This document shows positions 11,782 through 37,961 of a stretch of DNA of 64,000 nt, piece by piece (the stretch's first letter is position 1; each line of letters begins with the position of its first letter). The stretch is from Sanguibacter gelidistatuariae. Its GTDB lineage: Bacteria; Actinomycetota; Actinomycetes; Actinomycetales; Cellulomonadaceae. The position numbers and the translations under genes were made by a program. The stretch is taken from the NCBI RefSeq assembly GCF_900096585.1, contig NZ_FMYH01000010.1, forward strand, positions 1-64,000, in the 5' to 3' direction. The notes under the pieces are model-generated. The model saw only the letters and a program-made list of their open reading frames with translations, had not been told where the DNA came from and did no database searches.

Positions 11782-12407
11782 CCGCGCGGGTGGAGCACCT
11801 GGTCACGTCGGGGACTTTCTCCCTCGACGGGCAGACCTTCGACGTCGACAACAACGTGTGGATCCTCGGGGACGACTCCGAGGTCGTCGTCCTGGACGCC
11901 CCGCACGACGTCGACGCGATCGTCGCCGCGGTCGGGGCGCGCACGGTCCTCGCGGTCCTGGCCACCCACGCCCACGACGACCACGTCCGCCAGGCGCCCC
12001 GGCTCGCGGAGCGTCTCGGTGCGCCGATCTGGCTGCACCCGGCCGACCGCGAGCTCTGGGCGCTCACGCACCCCGATGCCGCGCCCACCGCCGACCTCGC
12101 CGACAGCCAGGTGATCGTCGTCGCCGGGACCGCCGTGCACGTCCTGCACACCCCCGGGCACAGCCCCGGCTCGGTGTCCTTCTACGTGCCCGACCTCTCC
12201 GTCGTGTTCACCGGGGACACCCTCTTCGCCGGCGGGCCGGGGGCGACCGGGCGCAGCTTCAGCGACTTCCCGACGATCGTCGAGTCGATCCGGACCCGCT
12301 TGCTGACCCTGCCGCCCGAGACGGTCGTGCACACCGGGCACGGCGACTCGACCACGATCGGGGCTGAGGCGCCGCACCTGGCGGAGTGGATCGCCCGCGG
12401 GCACTGA
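11778..12407 (+). CDS. MBL-fold metallo-hydrolase (glyoxalase II-like), partner of mscR
   Basis: A 209-residue metallo-beta-lactamase-fold protein with the metal-binding signature [12 protein letters not shown] at about residue 60, a second histidine in TPGHSPGS, and the bridging Asp in [10 protein letters not shown], ending in HTGHGDST. This is the complete two-metal site of glyoxalase II-like thioesterases. The GTG start overlaps the mscR stop (GTGA), so the pair is translationally coupled. The obvious inference is hydrolysis of the S-formyl-mycothiol made by MscR, releasing formate. The family is broad, so this remains a context-based call. Confidence 0.8.
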
Positions 12408-32330: not shown

Positions 32331-32807
32331 TCAAACCAGGACGAGCGAGTCCTGGATCTCCCGGATCTGGGCAAAAGCCGAGTCGACCTGTGCGCCCGCG
32401 CACGTCCCAGTGATCTGCACCACATCGAAGACCGGACCCGCTGAGAGCACACACATCCGCAGGGCCTGCACAAGAGTTCCACCCTTCCCGTCCGAGAAGT
32501 AGCCCTCGATCCGCAACCCCGGCGCTCCGAGCAGGTCTGCGGAGTCCTCGCGCAGGGTCTCGGTGAACCGCGGCAGCTCCTTGAGCCGGCGGGTCACCTC
32601 CTTCCGGGCGACCGCTACGGTGTGGTCCGCGCCGAAGCGCGTCACCGTGACGAGCACGTTCGGACGGAACTGCCCCTTGGGCACCTCCTGGGCGAGGGCG
32701 AGCGGCAGCCCGACTCCCGCGAGCGCCACCCACCCCTCCGGCTGGACGACCTGCAGGCTGGGGTAGGCCGGGAACGCCTCGCTCGGGAAGGTCAGCACCG
32801 AGCTCAT
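32331..32807 (-). CDS. DcrB/LpqN-like small protein closing the kinase-FHA operon
   Basis: 158 residues with no signal peptide. The pattern LTFPSEAFPAYPSLQVVQPE, then GWVALAGVGLPLALAQ, then FRPNVLVTVTRF, then ARKEVTRRLKELPRFTETLR, and a C-terminal Phe-Ala-Gln-Ile helix resembles the Mog1/PsbP-like fold of DcrB, LpqN and DUF1795 proteins. Similar cytosolic versions occur beside FHA and secretion-related genes. It starts one base inside the end of the FHA-winged-helix gene (TGATG), so it is translationally coupled. Function unknown; a scaffolding or effector role in the signalling module is inference. Confidence 0.65.
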   Translation of the reverse strand: MSSVLTFPSEAFPAYPSLQVVQPEGWVALAGVGLPLALAQEVPKGQFRPNVLVTVTRFGADHTVAVARKEVTRRLKELPRFTETLREDSADLLGAPGLRIEGYFSDGKGGTLVQALRMCVLSAGPVFDVVQITGTCAGAQVDSAFAQIREIQDSLVLV

Positions 32808-33502
32808 CAGTCGTCGGAGTCCACGTCGAGCAGCGGCAGGTCGGCCGACGTGACCAGGCGGGAGGTGACGGCGTACTCCACGAGCCGCGCCCGACGGTTC
32901 GTGGCGAGCTGCTTAGGCCCCCCACGCAGTCCCTTGACTCCCATCCGGTCGAGCTTGTCGCAGACGTTGTCGAGCTTGCGGTTGAACCGGGTCGTAGCCC
33001 ACCCCAGCCGCTTGGCCGCCTCGGCGGTCGACGGGATCTCGCTCAGACCGGCGCCGTCACGCTTGAGCATGGGCTCGCACAGCGCGACGATGAGCTGCTT
33101 CTGGCTCGTAGTGAAGGAGATCACGCCGATCGTCGTCTCGCCGATGAGCGGGTCGTCCGTCACGACCTCCTCGTACGGAGAGCCTTCCAGGTGCACCAGG
33201 AGCTCGTACGTCGTCGGGCCAGCCGTAAACACGATCGTGGTCGTCTTGAAGACGATCGGCAGGCGGTTGCCCGGGGAGAGCCAGGACTGCACCCCACCGC
33301 TCGCGTCGCACACCGTCACCGAGATGAGGGACCCGATGTTGGACAGCCACCAGATCCCGTCCGTGTAGGAGATCCGCAGGAACCGGCGGTGCAGGTACGG
33401 GTTGTCGTCGACGGACAGGTCCGCATCACGGCCGATGTCGAAGGGCTCGTCCAGGCTCGGGCGGAACCACTCGCCGCAGTAGTCGATCGCGAGTTCTGTC
33501 AT
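32807..33502 (-). CDS. FHA-like domain protein with C-terminal winged-helix-like domain
   Basis: 231 residues. Residues about 15-100 resemble an FHA domain: FDIGRDADLSVDDNPYLHRR then FLRISYTDGIWWLSNIGS, ending with an FTAGPTTYELLVHLEG strand. The second half looks like a DNA-binding winged helix: TTSQKQLIVALCEPMLKRDG, STAEAAKRLGWATTRFNRKL, DNVCDKLDRMGVKGLRGG, then a basic RRARLVEYAVTSRLV helix. A phosphothreonine-reading domain joined to a DNA-binding domain would link the kinase of this operon to transcription. Both domain calls are by pattern only. It follows the kinase gene by 106 bases and overlaps the next gene by one base. Confidence 0.75.
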   Translation of the reverse strand: MTELAIDYCGEWFRPSLDEPFDIGRDADLSVDDNPYLHRRFLRISYTDGIWWLSNIGSLISVTVCDASGGVQSWLSPGNRLPIVFKTTTIVFTAGPTTYELLVHLEGSPYEEVVTDDPLIGETTIGVISFTTSQKQLIVALCEPMLKRDGAGLSEIPSTAEAAKRLGWATTRFNRKLDNVCDKLDRMGVKGLRGGPKQLATNRRARLVEYAVTSRLVTSADLPLLDVDSDD

Positions 33503-33608
33503 CGCTTCACAGCTCCTTCATCCGCACCGCGCGCTGCGGCACCTCTTGCCCGGGCGGCACCAGCGGGATCCACCGCGCCTGCTCGGAAACTGTATCGAAA
33601 GAAACCCG

Positions 33609-35204
33609 TCATCCGAGGCAGGCCCGGGCCGGTTCCGTCGAGATCCTGCCGTCGCGGACCACGACCACCTCGACGCAGGGGTCCTTGACGTTGAAGGTGT
33701 TGACCGAGACGTTGAGCAGGGCGGTCTTGCGGAACGACCCGTCCCCGGCGCGGTAGGCGTAGAAGTCGCCGTCGCGGGGATCGGGGTTCACCCAGGAGAA
33801 CGTCGCCGCGCTCCCGTCGGCCGTCGGCGTTGCGGCGAGGTCGACGGGCTGGGGCACCCGCGAGGCGCTCAGCTCCATGGTGACCGCGACCAGCCGGTCG
33901 TAGATGATGACGCCGCCCGTCACGCCGAGGGCGAGGGCCAAGGCGACGACCACGGCGAGCGGCCGCCGTCGGACCCAGCTCGTCGCGCCCGACGCCGCAG
34001 CGGGCCTGGTCGCCCGGCGCAGGTCGGGCGCGGCGTCGGTGAGCGCGGGCGCGGGCGGCGCGACCGCCGGGCGCTGCGGCACGTAGGGGACCCCGTGGAT
34101 CGAGCCGTAGCTCGTCGAGGTCGAGTCGGAGCCGATCCCCGAGACCGAGTCGACCAGCACCGTGGCGACCGGAGGCTCACGCCGCGGCGCCGCGGCGTGA
34201 GCGACGCCGTAGCCGGGATGGAACCGGTCGCTCGCGATCCGGATCCTCGTCCCGCCGTCGACCTCGTCGTCACCCTCACCGCCGCCGGTCTCGTGCCCGT
34301 CGGCCGCCGAGATCTCGAAGGCTGCCTGGGAGTCGTTGATGATGTCGATCGGCGTGACCGCGAGGTTCAGGCCCATCTGCACCTGCTGGAGGGCGCGACC
34401 CAGGTCGAGCATGCTCGGGTAGCGCTGGTCCGGTTCCTTGGCCATCGCCGCCTCGAGCACCCGCTCGAAGGAGGCGGGCACGTCGCCGCGCTCGAGCGGC
34501 GGCAGCGGGGCGCCTGTGATGCGTTCGATCAGCGCGCGCTGGGAATTCACCCCGCCCGGCACCTCGAAGGGCGATCGTCCGGACAGCAGCGTGTACATCG
34601 TGGCGGCGAGGGACCAGACGTCGCTGGTCACGCCGCTGCGTGGGGCCGCCGTCAGGTTCTCCGGCGGCGACCAGGGGACGGACATGCCGTCGGCCCCGGC
34701 TTCGCTCTGCTCGATGGTCGCCGAGATGCCGAAGTCGGTCAGGGCCGGGTGCCCGTAGTCCGTCACCAGGATGTTGGCGGGCTTGATGTCGCGGTGCACG
34801 ATCCCGCTGCGGTGCGCGGTCTCGACCGCCCCGGCGATCTGGATGCCGATCCGCAGCGTCTCGGCGATGCCCAGGCGTTCCGTCTTGTACCGGGTGGACA
34901 GGTTGGGCCGCGAGCAGTACTCCATCGTCAGGAAGAGTCGGCCGTCCTTGGTGACGTCGGAGTCGAAGATCGTCACGATAGAGGGGTGGCTGGAGACCGT
35001 GGCCATCAGGTCGGCCTCGGCCGCGAAGGCCTCCCGGCTCGCGCCCTCGGACCACTGCGGGAGGAGCACCTTGATCGCAACCTGGCGGCGGGGACGGAAC
35101 TCCTGGTAGAGGAAGACGTCGGCAAATCCGCCCGAGCCGATGAGGCGGAGGTAGGAGTAGCCGTTGATCTCGGGAGGCTGCGAGGGGGGTCGTCTGCTGC
35201 TCAT
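33609..35204 (-). CDS. Membrane Ser/Thr protein kinase (PknB class, no PASTA domains)
   Basis: 531 residues. The kinase domain has a glycine loop GSGGFADVF (23-31), the VAIK lysine (45), catalytic HRDIKPAN (137-144), metal-binding DFG (157-159), and an activation loop rich in Ser ending in PWSPPENL. After a Gly/Asp/Pro-rich juxtamembrane linker, one membrane helix (PLAVVVALALALGVTGGVII, about 405-425) leads to an extracellular domain of about 100 residues. That domain resembles a fibronectin type III-like module (ATFSWVNPDPRDGDFYAYRA) with two cysteines near the end. PASTA repeats are absent, so peptidoglycan sensing as in PknB is not supported. The start overlaps the stop of the FHA gene by four bases. 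Confidence 0.92.
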   Translation of the reverse strand: MSSRRPPSQPPEINGYSYLRLIGSGGFADVFLYQEFRPRRQVAIKVLLPQWSEGASREAFAAEADLMATVSSHPSIVTIFDSDVTKDGRLFLTMEYCSRPNLSTRYKTERLGIAETLRIGIQIAGAVETAHRSGIVHRDIKPANILVTDYGHPALTDFGISATIEQSEAGADGMSVPWSPPENLTAAPRSGVTSDVWSLAATMYTLLSGRSPFEVPGGVNSQRALIERITGAPLPPLERGDVPASFERVLEAAMAKEPDQRYPSMLDLGRALQQVQMGLNLAVTPIDIINDSQAAFEISAADGHETGGGEGDDEVDGGTRIRIASDRFHPGYGVAHAAAPRREPPVATVLVDSVSGIGSDSTSTSYGSIHGVPYVPQRPAVAPPAPALTDAAPDLRRATRPAAASGATSWVRRRPLAVVVALALALGVTGGVIIYDRLVAVTMELSASRVPQPVDLAATPTADGSAATFSWVNPDPRDGDFYAYRAGDGSFRKTALLNVSVNTFNVKDPCVEVVVVRDGRISTEPARACLG

Positions 35205-36892
35205 ACAAGCCCTTGGAAGGACAGCTGGATGCCGTCGCCGAGGTCGACGACGTCACCCTCCGCCACGAGGGTCGCTTCCAGGGGGTGCAGACGACGCGGC
35301 GCCTGCCCCGCGCGCAGCAGGGTCGTGCCGTTGACCGTGTCCAGGTCGACGAGCAGCACGTGCCACCCTTCGAGGCGGATCTCCAGGTGAGAGCGGGAGA
35401 TGTCCTGGCTCGGGCTCGGGACGGTCACCAGTCGCTGGGAGACCGGAGAGCCGGTGGTCTGCGCCTGCGGGAACCGCCCGACGACGATCGGCACGCTGAG
35501 CTCGACACGCTCCCCGGTCGAGACGTTGACCCACCCCAACGGGGGCCGCTCGACGAGCTGGGCGTTGGGGCTCAGGCCGCCGCCGCACTGCGCACACGTC
35601 ATCCGCACCGGCGGGTTCGGGTGCCCGAAGAAGCAGGACCGGGCCAGGATCTCGGTTCCGCGAGGGGCCCGGAACGGTTCCACGGGCAACTGCGCCGGCT
35701 GTGACGCAGCCGGAACGGACGACTGCATGGCGACAGGCTGGGGTGCTGCGGGCTGAGGCGCGATCGGCTGGGGCGCGACAGGCGGCGGGGGCGGGGGCAC
35801 CGGAGGCATGCCTGCGGCGCCATGACCGGCGCTTGGCGACGACGGTTCGGGAGGCGGCGGGGGTGGCGGCATCGAGCTCTTGACCTGGGCGATCGCGGCG
35901 GCGAACAGCGTGCTGTCGTCGAAGTCGTCCTCGTCGCCGCCCTCGGTCGAGTCGATCGACTCGAAGGACTCGACAGCTTCGAGCACGGACGGCGCGCCTA
36001 TCACGGCGTACCCGGGACGACCGTGGACCACGGTGTGCTCGTCGAGGACGGCGTCGTCGTCATCGTCGTCGTCGTCGACCACTGTGACCGGGGCGCCAGG
36101 GACATCGGTCGCCTCGTCCGCGTCCCACTCCTCTGGGAACCCAGCGAGCGTTCGTGCAAACTCCGACTCGGCCTGCTGGACGAGGCTGAGCCGGTGAGCC
36201 GATGCAGCGGCATCGGCGTCGGCGGTATCGGCATCGGCATCGGCATCGGCATCGGCATCGGCATCGGCATCGGCATCGGATGCTTCGGCCACCGGCACGG
36301 ACTCGTCGATCGAGGCCACGACGATCGGCGCACCGACGTTCTCGTCGATCTCGCCAGCCGTCTGCACGGTCCACCGCAGCCGATCGACCTGCACGACTCC
36401 GTCGGCGATGCTCAGCAGCGCCGCGCCAGCCACGACCGCGTCGTCATCGACCGCGTCGTCATCGTCCGGGACACCATCGGCCGCGCCGGAGGCAAGCAGC
36501 TCGAGGCGCGTGACGTCGTGGACGAGCACGTCGACCCAGGTGGTCACCAGGGGGCCGCTGACCAGCTCGGTCCCGACCGGGGTCGTCACCGCGGCGCTGA
36601 ACGCCCCGCGAACGGCGACCTGCGCCGAACGGCTCGTCAGCACACCGCCACCGGCTGCACCGCCGTCGACCAGCGCGATCGCGAAGGAAGGCAGCGCACG
36701 CCACGTGGGGTCGAGGACAGCGGTGACGGTGTCGAGGAGCGTGGCGAGATCACGGGGGCCCGGCGCGTCCGCCGCCTCGATCGCCGTCCACAGTGCAGCG
36801 GCAGTCTTGATCCCCACAGACTTGTCGACCATGACGACAAGACCGGGCCGCACCAGGGCGAAGGCCGGTCCGGGCGCATAGTGAATCGACAT
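35201..36892 (-). CDS. FHA-domain protein with (DA)n tract and Cys-pair segment
   Basis: 563 residues. The N-terminal 180 residues form a domain starting SIHYAPGPAFALVRPGLVVM that I cannot name. An acidic low-complexity middle holds a run of Asp-Ala repeats and runs of Asp, then Pro-rich tracts (SMPPPPPPPEPS). A short segment with Cys pairs follows (SCFFGHPNPPVRMTCAQCGG). The C-terminal FHA domain is PIVVGRFP, then QDISRSHLEIRLEGWHVLLV, DLDTVNGTTLL, with the phosphothreonine-binding Arg, Ser and His intact. It is a likely substrate and binding partner of the adjacent kinase. GAGG precedes ATG 36892. The start of the kinase gene overlaps its stop. Confidence 0.85.
   Translation of the reverse strand: MSIHYAPGPAFALVRPGLVVMVDKSVGIKTAAALWTAIEAADAPGPRDLATLLDTVTAVLDPTWRALPSFAIALVDGGAAGGGVLTSRSAQVAVRGAFSAAVTTPVGTELVSGPLVTTWVDVLVHDVTRLELLASGAADGVPDDDDAVDDDAVVAGAALLSIADGVVQVDRLRWTVQTAGEIDENVGAPIVVASIDESVPVAEASDADADADADADADADADTADADAAASAHRLSLVQQAESEFARTLAGFPEEWDADEATDVPGAPVTVVDDDDDDDDAVLDEHTVVHGRPGYAVIGAPSVLEAVESFESIDSTEGGDEDDFDDSTLFAAAIAQVKSSMPPPPPPPEPSSPSAGHGAAGMPPVPPPPPPVAPQPIAPQPAAPQPVAMQSSVPAASQPAQLPVEPFRAPRGTEILARSCFFGHPNPPVRMTCAQCGGGLSPNAQLVERPPLGWVNVSTGERVELSVPIVVGRFPQAQTTGSPVSQRLVTVPSPSQDISRSHLEIRLEGWHVLLVDLDTVNGTTLLRAGQAPRRLHPLEATLVAEGDVVDLGDGIQLSFQGLV
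36232..36279. repeat. Hexanucleotide repeat, eight exact CATCGG units
   Basis: Eight uninterrupted copies of CATCGG (48 bp) lie within the FHA-protein gene; flanking TATCGG and CATCGGCGTCGG are degenerate units. They encode a (Asp-Ala)n run. The six-base unit keeps the frame, so slippage would change protein length without switching it off. Confidence 0.95.
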
Positions 36893-36947
36893 CTCTACCT
36901 CAATCTGCTGGGGGCGGCCGTCGCGCTCTCGCACCGGACACTACCGA

Positions 36948-37784
36948 CTACGCCGTGCGAGCGGAACTTTCCCGGCCGTGGTGGACCATATCGCCCGCCG
37001 CCGCGACCCCGCTGATCGCGGGTCTGGCGACGCCCGGCGGGCGCGCCACGTCGACGACCAGGACGGTGATGTTGTCCCGTCCGCCTGCCAGCAGGGCGCT
37101 GTTGACCAGCTGGTCGGCGGCCAGCTGGGGGTGCGGCTGGTCCCGCAGGACGCGCGCGATCACGTCCGCGGAGACCTCTTCGGTAAGTCCGTCGGAGCAG
37201 ATCATCAGGCGCTCCCCCGGAACGATCGGCAGGTACCAGCAGTCCGGTTCCGGCTCGACCATCCCACCCAGGGCCCGGGTGATGACGTGCCTGCGCGCGT
37301 AGGTCCGCGCTTCCTCGGGCGAGACCTCGCCCGCGGCGAGCATCTCCTGGACGAGCGAGTGGTCGGTCGTCACCTGAGCAAGCTTGCCCTCGTAGAACCG
37401 ATAGGTGCGGGAGTCTCCGACGTTGGCGATGAGCCAGCTCGGGACACCGTCACGGCGCACGACGACGGCCCCCGACATGGTCGTGCCCGCGTTCCGTCCG
37501 GGTTGGGTCGCGATCCGCGACACCGCGCGATGCGCGTCGCTGACCACGGCGTAGAGGTCGTCCTCGGAGGCATTCTCGGCCTCGCCGATCGAGCACAGCA
37601 CGGCGACGGCGGTCGCGCTGGCGCGGGCACCTGCCTCGTGGCCGCCCATCCCATCGGCGACGAAGTAGACCCCACGCTCGGCGTGGAAGGCATCCTCGTT
37701 GACGCTCCGCCGTCGCCCGGTGTGCGTGGTCGCGCCCCAGCGCAGCGTGGGGAGGGGGTGCCGCTGGTCCACGCGCCCGTCCAC
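36948..37784 (-). CDS. PP2C-family Ser/Thr protein phosphatase
   Basis: 278 residues with the metal-dependent PP2C motifs in order: RSVNEDAFHAERGVYFVADG then MGGHEAGARAS (motifs 1-2), GTTMSGAVV, LIANVGDSRTYRFYEGKL then AQVTTDHSLVQEM, LMICSDGLTEEV, and GGRDNITVLVVDV. All Asp ligands of the dinuclear metal centre are present. It is the first gene of the signalling run and lies 55 bases upstream of the FHA gene. It should reverse phosphorylation by the kinase two genes later. It is soluble, unlike PstP, which has a membrane anchor. The GTG start is probable; a second GTG four codons later is possible. Confidence 0.93.
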   Translation of the reverse strand: MDGRVDQRHPLPTLRWGATTHTGRRRSVNEDAFHAERGVYFVADGMGGHEAGARASATAVAVLCSIGEAENASEDDLYAVVSDAHRAVSRIATQPGRNAGTTMSGAVVVRRDGVPSWLIANVGDSRTYRFYEGKLAQVTTDHSLVQEMLAAGEVSPEEARTYARRHVITRALGGMVEPEPDCWYLPIVPGERLMICSDGLTEEVSADVIARVLRDQPHPQLAADQLVNSALLAGGRDNITVLVVDVARPPGVARPAISGVAAAGDMVHHGRESSARTA

Positions 37785-37844
37785 CTACCTCTTCTGCTGG
37801 GTCTTTGCCGGATCCCGGCGGATCACAGATCCGCATGGCAGGCC

Positions 37845-37862
37845 GCTCCGCACGTGCGGAGC
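37845..37862. other. Perfect GC palindrome in the PP2C upstream region
   Basis: GCTCCGCACGTGCGGAGC is an 18-bp perfect palindrome, about 60 bases upstream of the phosphatase start. It may be an operator for the signalling operon or part of a terminator for the gene cluster behind it. Confidence 0.4.
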
Positions 37863-37936
37863 CACCCGTGCCGCGTTCGTCCGAGCGCGGCGACCGACTG
37901 GACTCAGACGCTAGTCGTCTAGACGGCCATCAGCGA

Positions 37937-37952
37937 TGGGGAGTAGTCCCCA
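37937..37952 (-). terminator. Candidate terminator after the polyprenyl synthase gene
   Basis: TGGGGA-GTAG-TCCCCA is a perfect 6-bp hairpin beginning 10 bases after the synthase stop. No T-run follows on the minus strand, as is common in GC-rich actinobacteria. It would close the long menJ-nuo transcript. Confidence 0.5.
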
Positions 37953-37961
37953 GCGCCGCCG

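What the first reader, a model, noticed from the sequence alone, without database searches (positions are those of the whole stretch)
32331..37784. Five-gene phospho-signalling module with a possible direct DNA-binding output
PP2C, FHA protein, membrane Ser/Thr kinase, FHA-like/winged-helix protein and a DcrB/LpqN-like protein are co-directional, with overlaps at the kinase and at the last junction. Writer, eraser and two readers are all present, and one reader carries a predicted DNA-binding domain. Unlike the usual pknB-pstP cell-division cluster, there are no rodA, pbpA or PASTA repeats. This is the best candidate here for a poorly described system.
Basis: partly seen in the sequence, partly recalled or inferred. 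Interest (0 to 1): 0.75.

Follow-up and report, generated by a model that had tools for sequence, protein, structure and literature searches.

The report
Stranded control genes of lost secretion system
Five neighbouring genes in this Sanguibacter-like bacterium look like the control unit (switch-on enzyme, switch-off enzyme, sensor-type and DNA-binding-type proteins) of a protein-export machine whose motor and cargo genes have disappeared from the spot, and at least one control protein is still strongly preserved, which suggests it has a job of its own.

Summary
In detail: PP2C, FHA protein, membrane Ser/Thr kinase, FHA-helix-turn-helix-like protein, LpqN/DcrB-fold protein, one strand, overlaps of 4 and 1 nt. 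In 80 named relatives (nearest 80 of 549) the kinase precedes the FHA-HTH gene in 73 and an EccC-type FHA-FtsK/SpoIIIE ATPase follows it in 68; WXG100 genes are seen in 37, the LpqN-like gene in 25. In G309, one of three relatives examined upstream, the locus reads nuoL-M-N, polyprenyl synthase, giant surface protein, MoxR, DUF58, transglutaminase, RDD-FHA, PP2C, FHA, kinase, FHA-HTH, EccC, WXG100, LpqN, oxidoreductase. The window has the same flanks with two blocks missing: the control arm of a type VII secretion/PFNA-like supercluster, stranded after loss of the machine. Five of 5 Sanguibacter loci lack EccC; one also lacks the kinase; four Jonesia-like lack kinase and phosphatase. FHA-HTH stays 91-95% identical within Sanguibacter. 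Its FHA lacks the Ser/His and NG of phosphothreonine readers (40 of 40 aligned), but an invariant Thr sits in its disordered linker. Mechanism (inferred): kinase/PP2C set that Thr, FHA1 reads marks, the HTH protein is an EspM/EmbR-like output. DNA binding is untested; no 'wing' appears in the model.

The parts
36948..37784 (-). PP2C-type Ser/Thr phosphatase, 278 aa; its C-terminal tail lacks the [DE]xDT[ILV]P[RK] motif found in 54 of 65 PP2C proteins examined
35201..36934 (-). FHA1: 577 aa, conserved N-terminal part, acidic/Pro-rich middle with DFDDSTL, Cys/His cluster resembling a Zn ribbon (by eye), C-terminal canonical FHA (GR, SxxH, NG invariant in 17 of 17 aligned)
33609..35204 (-). Ser/Thr kinase, 531 aa: catalytic domain 16-261, linker with DGGTRIR (34239-34259), one membrane helix, small outer domain without a PASTA match
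32807..33502 (-). FHA-HTH protein ('FHAwH'), 231 aa: FHA fold 33185-33502, disordered linker 33110-33184, helical HTH-like domain 32825-33109
33131..33133 (-). codon of Thr124 of the FHA-HTH protein (GETTIG), invariant in 40 of 40 closer homologues aligned, in a low-confidence (disordered) linker; proposed phospho-acceptor (inference)
32951..33019 (-). most conserved block of the FHA-HTH protein, helix-turn-helix-like (AAKRLGW...FNRKLDNVCDKL)
32331..32807 (-). LpqN/DcrB/Mog1/EagR-fold protein, 158 aa, no signal peptide seen (by eye); directly follows a WXG100 gene in 22 of the 25 named loci that show it
37785..37961 (.). junction where relative G309 carries giant surface protein, MoxR, DUF58, transglutaminase and RDD-FHA genes between polyprenyl synthase and PP2C
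32806..32808 (.). junction (1-nt gene overlap) where 22 of 80 named relatives carry EccC and WXG100 genes between the FHA-HTH and LpqN-like genes

Best explanation
The five genes are the regulatory arm of a type VII secretion/PFNA-like supercluster that stayed behind at its original chromosomal site after the giant surface protein-MoxR-DUF58-transglutaminase-RDD block and the EccC-WXG100 block were lost from it in the ancestor of Sanguibacter and the Jonesia-like genera. Proposed working: the membrane kinase senses an envelope signal through its small outer domain, phosphorylates itself and the exposed threonines of partners (its own linker, the FHA1 linker and Thr124 in the FHA-HTH linker); PP2C reverses this; FHA1, which keeps a complete pThr pocket, reads these marks and gathers the complex; the FHA-HTH protein, whose own FHA pocket is altered, acts as the output, most likely as a transcriptional regulator of EspM/EmbR style, now aimed at chromosomal targets other than the lost machine; the LpqN-fold protein is a cytosolic chaperone-like partner. 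Shown here: gene content, orthology, order, the absences, selection on the genes, domain folds, residue conservation. Inferred: signal, phosphorylation, complex, DNA binding, targets.
For: 68 of 80 named loci have the EccC gene directly after FHA-HTH, 73 of 80 have the kinase before it. In relative G309 the same flanks (nuoL-M-N-PPS ... LpqN-FNR) enclose the full supercluster. The giant gene lies about 10-12 kb from FHA-HTH in 12 of 12 EccC-bearing genomes checked, and more than 100 kb away or on another contig in 9 of 9 genomes of the window's clade (coordinates). Window FHA-HTH and kinase group with the EccC-linked ones (98/91 and 100/98); Sanguibacter plus Jonesia is one clade (100/95), so one loss suffices. 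No EccC orthologue was found elsewhere in the draft genome: its own EccC-like proteins fall outside the locus clade (21 rows, 100/100). FHA-HTH dN/dS is 0.073 and 0.101 for window against L031 and L032, within or below the flanking genes' 0.095-0.215. Thr124 invariant in 40 of 40, in a disordered linker. FHA1 keeps the whole pThr motif in 17 of 17.
Against: The kinase, FHA1, PP2C and LpqN-like genes evolve faster (dN/dS 0.16-0.52), the kinase has a long stem (0.45), the PP2C tail motif is lost in window, L031 and L032, one Sanguibacter lost the kinase, and four Jonesia-like genomes lost kinase and PP2C: parts of the unit may be decaying. The L031-L032 pair gives a higher FHA-HTH dN/dS, 0.190, on ORFs that include N-terminal extensions. 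No conserved operator was seen upstream of FHA-HTH (four usable sequences). The HTH assignment is weak by sequence and was not tested by structure search. In a class-wide sample only 6 of 40 FHA-HTH genes are followed by EccC.
Confidence: 0.6

Rival explanations
1. Plain decay: after loss of the secretion machine the regulators are being eroded and have no present function.
For: Stepwise loss: EccC/WXG100/RDD first, then kinase in one Sanguibacter, kinase and PP2C in four Jonesia-like genomes, FHA-HTH matched in two separate pieces of different frame in G310; fast evolution of four of the five genes.
Against: All five ORFs intact in the window; FHA1, FHA-HTH and LpqN-like found in 9 of 9 genomes of the clade (FHA-HTH disrupted in 1); FHA-HTH dN/dS 0.073 and 0.101 for the window pairs.
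Confidence: 0.2
2. Rewiring: the stranded FHA-HTH/LpqN pair now serves the distant PFNA-like cluster (FHA, PP2C, FHA1, kinase, giant protein, MoxR, DUF58), which has its own kinase but no FHA-HTH gene.
For: The giant gene is present in 9 of 9 clade genomes, away from the locus; no FHA-HTH paralogue in the own genome; in 7 of 40 class-sample loci the giant gene directly follows FHA-HTH; the three genomes checked that lost the local kinase keep a kinase of the distant type (S. suarezii L192, J. quinghaiensis L191, G336 L284).
Against: No direct link between the two loci was tested; the two kinases are paralogues 52% identical over 334 residues, not orthologues.
Confidence: 0.25
3. The FHA-HTH protein is not a transcription factor but a docking adaptor for EccC/FHA1, its helical domain being a protein-binding module.
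For: FHA pocket altered, no wing, no conserved operator found; it is encoded directly before EccC in 68 of 80 named loci.
Against: The helical domain is the most conserved part (37 of 95 positions at 38 of 40 or more) with an HTH-like block and weak HTH profile matches in a few members, and it persists where EccC is gone.
Confidence: 0.3

Closest known systems
T7SSd/T7SSe of Garrett et al. 2024 (PMC11217815; abstract and passages seen)
   Same: FHA-bearing EccC-type ATPase, WXG100, membrane Ser/Thr kinase, giant Ig-like envelope protein; T7SSe also has a PPM phosphatase and an FHA protein (TseJ)
   Different: No FHA-HTH, LpqN-fold, RDD-FHA, MoxR/DUF58/transglutaminase genes in the passages seen; 'LpqN' and 'winged' and 'MoxR', 'transglutaminase', 'Arthrobacter', 'Micrococc', 'Cellul' have no occurrence in its main text; the window lacks the ATPase and WXG100
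PFNA operon of Bifidobacterium (PMC8430577, PMC6803598; passages seen)
   Same: Kinase, giant FN3 protein, MoxR ATPase, DUF58, transglutaminase, in some species PP2C and FHA
   Different: No EccC, FHA-HTH or LpqN gene named in the passages; described as found only in bifidobacteria; in the window only kinase, PP2C and FHA-type genes remain at the site
EspM, ESX-1-linked transcription factor (PMC7002343, PMC11005418; passages seen)
   Same: N-terminal FHA, C-terminal HTH, encoded beside a type VII secretion locus; binds the whiB6 promoter and represses
   Different: At least 363 aa with a larger C-terminal half; sequence homology to the window protein not tested
EmbR (PDB 2fez/2ff4, hits; function recalled)
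   Same: Transcription factor with an FHA domain tied to a Ser/Thr kinase (recalled)
   Different: FHA at the C-terminal end (chain residues 287-382) and another DNA-binding domain (recalled)
T6SS threonine-phosphorylation pathway PpkA-PppA-Fha (search listing and passages in PMC11217815 only)
   Same: Kinase, PP2C, FHA controlling a secretion machine; Eag chaperones share the LpqN-like fold
   Different: Different machine, Gram-negative

Membership tests
Type VII secretion locus (locus as it stands in the window) | EccC/EssC-type ATPase gene | tested here: not met
   none in the stretches held around the locus in 5 of 5 Sanguibacter; genome's own EccC-like proteins are outside the locus clade
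Type VII secretion locus (locus as it stands in the window) | WXG100 gene at the locus | tested here: not met
   WXG100 matches only on contigs C10 and C12
T7SSd-like supercluster (relatives) | ATPase with N-terminal FHA and FtsK/SpoIIIE domains | tested here: met
   P0001: FtsK_SpoIIIE 1.4e-54, FHA 4.3e-12
T7SSd-like supercluster (relatives) | WXG100 protein | tested here: inconclusive
   two tested: E 0.0021 and 4.8e-5, both under the curated cut-off; size and place after EccC fit
T7SSd-like supercluster (relatives) | TsdH single-helix protein; TsdI identity of the giant protein | not tested
   no TsdH or TsdI sequence was compared
PFNA operon (relative G309) | giant protein, MoxR, DUF58, transglutaminase in order | tested here: met
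   order as in PFNA, but kinase placed after them; bifidobacterial sequences not compared
PFNA operon (window locus) | giant protein, MoxR, DUF58, transglutaminase | tested here: not met
   absent from the locus; giant and MoxR lie on contig C13
pknB-pstP cell-division cluster | PASTA kinase, rodA, pbpA | tested here: not met
   no PASTA match, no such neighbours; separate cluster on C17 by inspection
Canonical phosphothreonine-binding FHA (FHA-HTH protein) | conserved Arg | tested here: met
   R25 in 49 of 49 aligned
Canonical phosphothreonine-binding FHA (FHA-HTH protein) | Ser and His of SxxH, and NG turn | tested here: not met
   His at the Ser site in 40 of 40 closer homologues, no NG in the window; the 9 distant homologues keep Ser
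EspM-type regulator | N-terminal FHA fold, C-terminal HTH | tested here: inconclusive
   FHA met; C-terminal domain helical, weak HTH matches in a few of 43 members and none for the window itself
EspM-type regulator | DNA binding and control of secretion genes | not testable with these tools
   needs EMSA/ChIP
LpqN/DcrB/EagR fold (158-aa protein) | fold | tested here: met
   3lyd TM 0.87, LpqN 6e5d E 4.2e-9, DcrB, EagT6, SciW

The most novel reading that the evidence does not exclude
The FHA-HTH protein is the dedicated phospho-switchable transcription factor of an undescribed Actinomycetales secretion supercluster that unites PFNA-type genes with a T7SSd-like machine; in Sanguibacter and Jonesia relatives the machine was lost but the switch was kept and re-aimed, possibly to the distant giant-protein cluster, giving a one-step kinase-to-DNA pathway controlled by Thr124.
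Probability: 0.25. Interest if true: 0.75.

Novelty: new variant of a known kind. Interest (0 to 1): 0.55.

Why it matters
It links two systems described separately, the PFNA operon (PMC6803598 states that orthologues of its genes were not found in other organisms) and T7SSd-like secretion, in one locus across many actinobacteria, with a full phosphorylation circuit and an FHA-HTH protein as likely output. The Sanguibacter-Jonesia clade is a natural deletion series (machine, then kinase, then phosphatase removed) that shows which control part is kept longest, and makes the question 'does Ser/Thr phosphorylation control type VII secretion genes?' directly testable in soil bacteria.

Tried and rejected
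Anti-phage defence: PADLOC matches of the kinase are kinase-domain matches and none of the other four genes points that way (PP2C matches one candidate PDC family at 3.1e-9 over its phosphatase domain); rejected. EccC relocated within the genome: tested by tree on a domain of about 280 residues, the lone C12 ATPase and the C10 ESX-like ATPase lie outside the locus clade; rejected, within a draft genome of 18 contigs. Operator search by footprinting upstream of FHA-HTH (five Sanguibacter sequences, of which L238 gave only 21 nt) and of PP2C (three of five could be extracted): no convincing conserved site. Sigma-70 promoters and terminators: none, uninformative in GC-rich DNA. HTH by PDB sequence profile of the C-terminal domain: best E 0.089, a designed bundle: no support. 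The structure second look covered residues 1-108 only, so the C-terminal fold is untested there. The FNR controls for L031/L032 in the dN/dS script came out 'absent' through my ORF picking, not real absence (FNR is seen). The PK, PP2C and FHA1 motifs were written after viewing sequences, so their shuffle expectations are optimistic; the strict PK motif misses 14 of 74 including the window, the PP2C motif 11 of 65 including the window; a further FHA1 motif was found in only 9 of 65. In the trees the label 'PF' was given by arrangement; later found a giant gene directly after FHA-HTH in seven of those nine loci, divergent in L158 and none in L153. The alignment A1 holds 49 chosen of the 121 FHA-HTH sequences then held. 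Presence of PPS directly before the giant gene was looked for in three genomes: seen in G309, 15 kb away in G307, not seen in the stretches of G360. That G353, G367 and G315 are the same genomes as L031, L032 and L034 is inferred from equal coordinates.

Full report
1. Observation. Pfam supports PP2C, FHA and kinase. The closest named genomes are Sanguibacter (FHA-HTH 92% and 91%). Only the kinase has a membrane helix (hydropathy). A canonical division kinase cluster is elsewhere (C17, by inspection).

2. Conservation. The FHA-HTH protein is single-copy in the genome and found in 42 of 296 class genomes, 80 of 198 order genomes and 48 of 81 family genomes, own genome counted. In 80 named loci (the best 80 of 549) the kinase precedes it in 73 and an EccC-type gene follows it within 600 bp on the same strand in 68; PP2C, FHA1, kinase and FHA-HTH are all on one strand in 69, and five of the 11 misses are loci cut by contig ends. 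The EccC-type protein has FHA and FtsK/SpoIIIE domains. WXG100-size genes were found in 37 of the 80 and the LpqN-like gene in 25, 22 of them directly after a WXG100 gene and 3 (window's clade) directly after FHA-HTH; the fetched flank ends about 6 kb downstream, so these are lower bounds. In a class-wide sample the pattern is looser: 6 of 40 followed by EccC, 18 of 40 preceded by the kinase, 7 of 40 followed directly by a giant surface protein gene. Microbacterium L074 has FHA-HTH near a WXG100-domain gene.

3. The ancestral site. In 15 further family loci fetched (L241, L242, L244-L256; L246 and L247 are one genome) all have RDD-FHA, PP2C, FHA1, kinase, FHA-HTH; 14 show EccC and the fifteenth ends at a contig end. 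With the giant protein of the own genome's other cluster as query, a homologue was found in 21 of 21 genomes; in 12 of 12 EccC-bearing ones it lies about 10-12 kb from FHA-HTH, in 9 of 9 Sanguibacter/Jonesia-like genomes it is over 100 kb away or on another contig (coordinates). In G309 the order is nuoL-nuoM-nuoN-PPS-giant-MoxR-DUF58-transglutaminase-RDD-PP2C-FHA1-kinase-FHA-HTH-EccC-WXG100-LpqN-FNR. The window has nuoL-nuoM-nuoN-PPS-PP2C-FHA1-kinase-FHA-HTH-LpqN-FNR: the same flanks with two blocks missing. Of three genomes looked at upstream, G309 alone has PPS directly before the giant gene; in G307 it is 15 kb away, in G360 not in the stretches held.

4. Loss, not gain. The FHA-HTH proteins of Sanguibacter and Jonesia form one clade (100/95) inside EccC-linked ones (98/91; 46 rows). 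The window kinase is orthologous to EccC-linked kinases (100/98) and distinct from the kinase of the own genome's second cluster (38 rows). The genome's other EccC-like proteins are not orthologues of the lost one (36 rows). Further losses: kinase absent in S. suarezii (gap of under 200 bp), kinase and PP2C absent in four Jonesia-like genomes, FHA-HTH in two frames in G310. Kept in 9 of 9: FHA1, FHA-HTH (disrupted in G310), LpqN-like.

5. Selection. Nei-Gojobori dN/dS between window and L031/L032: FHA-HTH 0.073/0.101; flanking PPS 0.150/0.215 and M48 peptidase 0.190/0.095; PP2C 0.240/0.211; LpqN-like 0.339/0.162; FHA1 0.465/0.402; kinase 0.342 (L031 only). L031 against L032: FHA-HTH 0.190 (255 codons, N-terminal extensions included), PPS 0.177, M48 0.193, PP2C 0.317, LpqN-like 0.192, FHA1 0.517. 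Window against Jonesia L034: FHA-HTH 0.117. So one part is held about as tightly as housekeeping neighbours, the rest mostly more loosely.

7. The last gene. Model pLDDT 91.3; structural matches 3lyd (Jonesia denitrificans, 26% identity, so probably not the locus orthologue, which is 47% identical in J. quinghaiensis), LpqN, PsbP, DcrB, EagT6, SciW, Mog1. Pfam Lpp-LpqN in 10 of 20 homologues, not in the window's own. No signal peptide is visible, so a cytosolic, chaperone-like role next to WXG100 genes is plausible (inference), by analogy with Eag chaperones.

8. Phosphosite candidates. Kinase linker motif TRxRxxxSID in 60 of 74, PP2C tail [DE]xDT[ILV]P[RK] in 54 of 65, FHA1 acidic-TV-type motif in 30 of 65 (patterns written after viewing). 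The window keeps DGGTRIR and DFDDSTL but not the PP2C tail motif. These are predictions only.

9. Literature. Garrett et al. 2024 (abstract and passages) describe T7SSd/e with kinases, phosphatases and FHA proteins; term searches of its main text found no 'winged', 'LpqN', 'MoxR' or 'transglutaminase'. PFNA papers (passages) describe the kinase-giant-MoxR-DUF58-transglutaminase operon as bifidobacterial. EspM (passages) is an FHA-HTH regulator beside ESX-1 that binds DNA. My ten searches listed no paper on this supercluster; several capped their lists, and the library is open-access only.

10. Verdict. Real, conserved, and better explained as the stranded control arm of a secretion supercluster than as a new five-gene system. 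The origin is well supported (about 0.9); the phospho-to-DNA mechanism is an inference (about 0.4).

Noticed in passing
L127:7695-20000 (G000 contig C13): Second, paralogous phospho-module in the own genome: FHA, PP2C, FHA1, kinase, about 2050-aa giant surface protein, MoxR, and a DUF58-like start; PFNA-like and without FHA-HTH, EccC or LpqN-like genes in the stretch held.
   Followed up: partly
L135:11804-16750 (G000 contig C12): Lone 1648-aa FtsK/SpoIIIE (EccC-like) protein with unrelated neighbours, with kin in two other Sanguibacter genomes, a separate clade from the locus EccC.
   Followed up: partly
window 36204-36279: Hexanucleotide repeat (about 12 copies of GCATCG) in the FHA1 linker coding for an Asp-Ala run; could change length without frameshift.
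   Followed up: no
L067, L042, L101: Records titled Sporosarcina, Sphaerisporangium and Acidobacteria carry loci like those of Arthrobacter or Cellulosimicrobium, possibly mislabelled or contaminated.
   Followed up: no
L046:11294-11593 and 11944-12243: Two WXG100-type genes with the same translated protein, about 650 bp apart after EccC in Isoptericola halotolerans.
   Followed up: no
L243 (G310), also G472 and G496: FHA-HTH gene matched in two frames in G310, and with one in-frame stop in each of two other genomes of the order: signs of ongoing loss.
   Followed up: no
L074:2609-8779: In Microbacterium FHA-HTH stands without a kinase in the 12.7 kb held, near a WXG100-domain gene and a gene with an alpha/beta-hydrolase domain.
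   Followed up: partly
L153 (G178): Locus with LpqN-like, PP2C, FHA1, kinase, FHA-HTH and, about 6 kb on, an EccC of the locus clade; what lies between was not examined.
   Followed up: no
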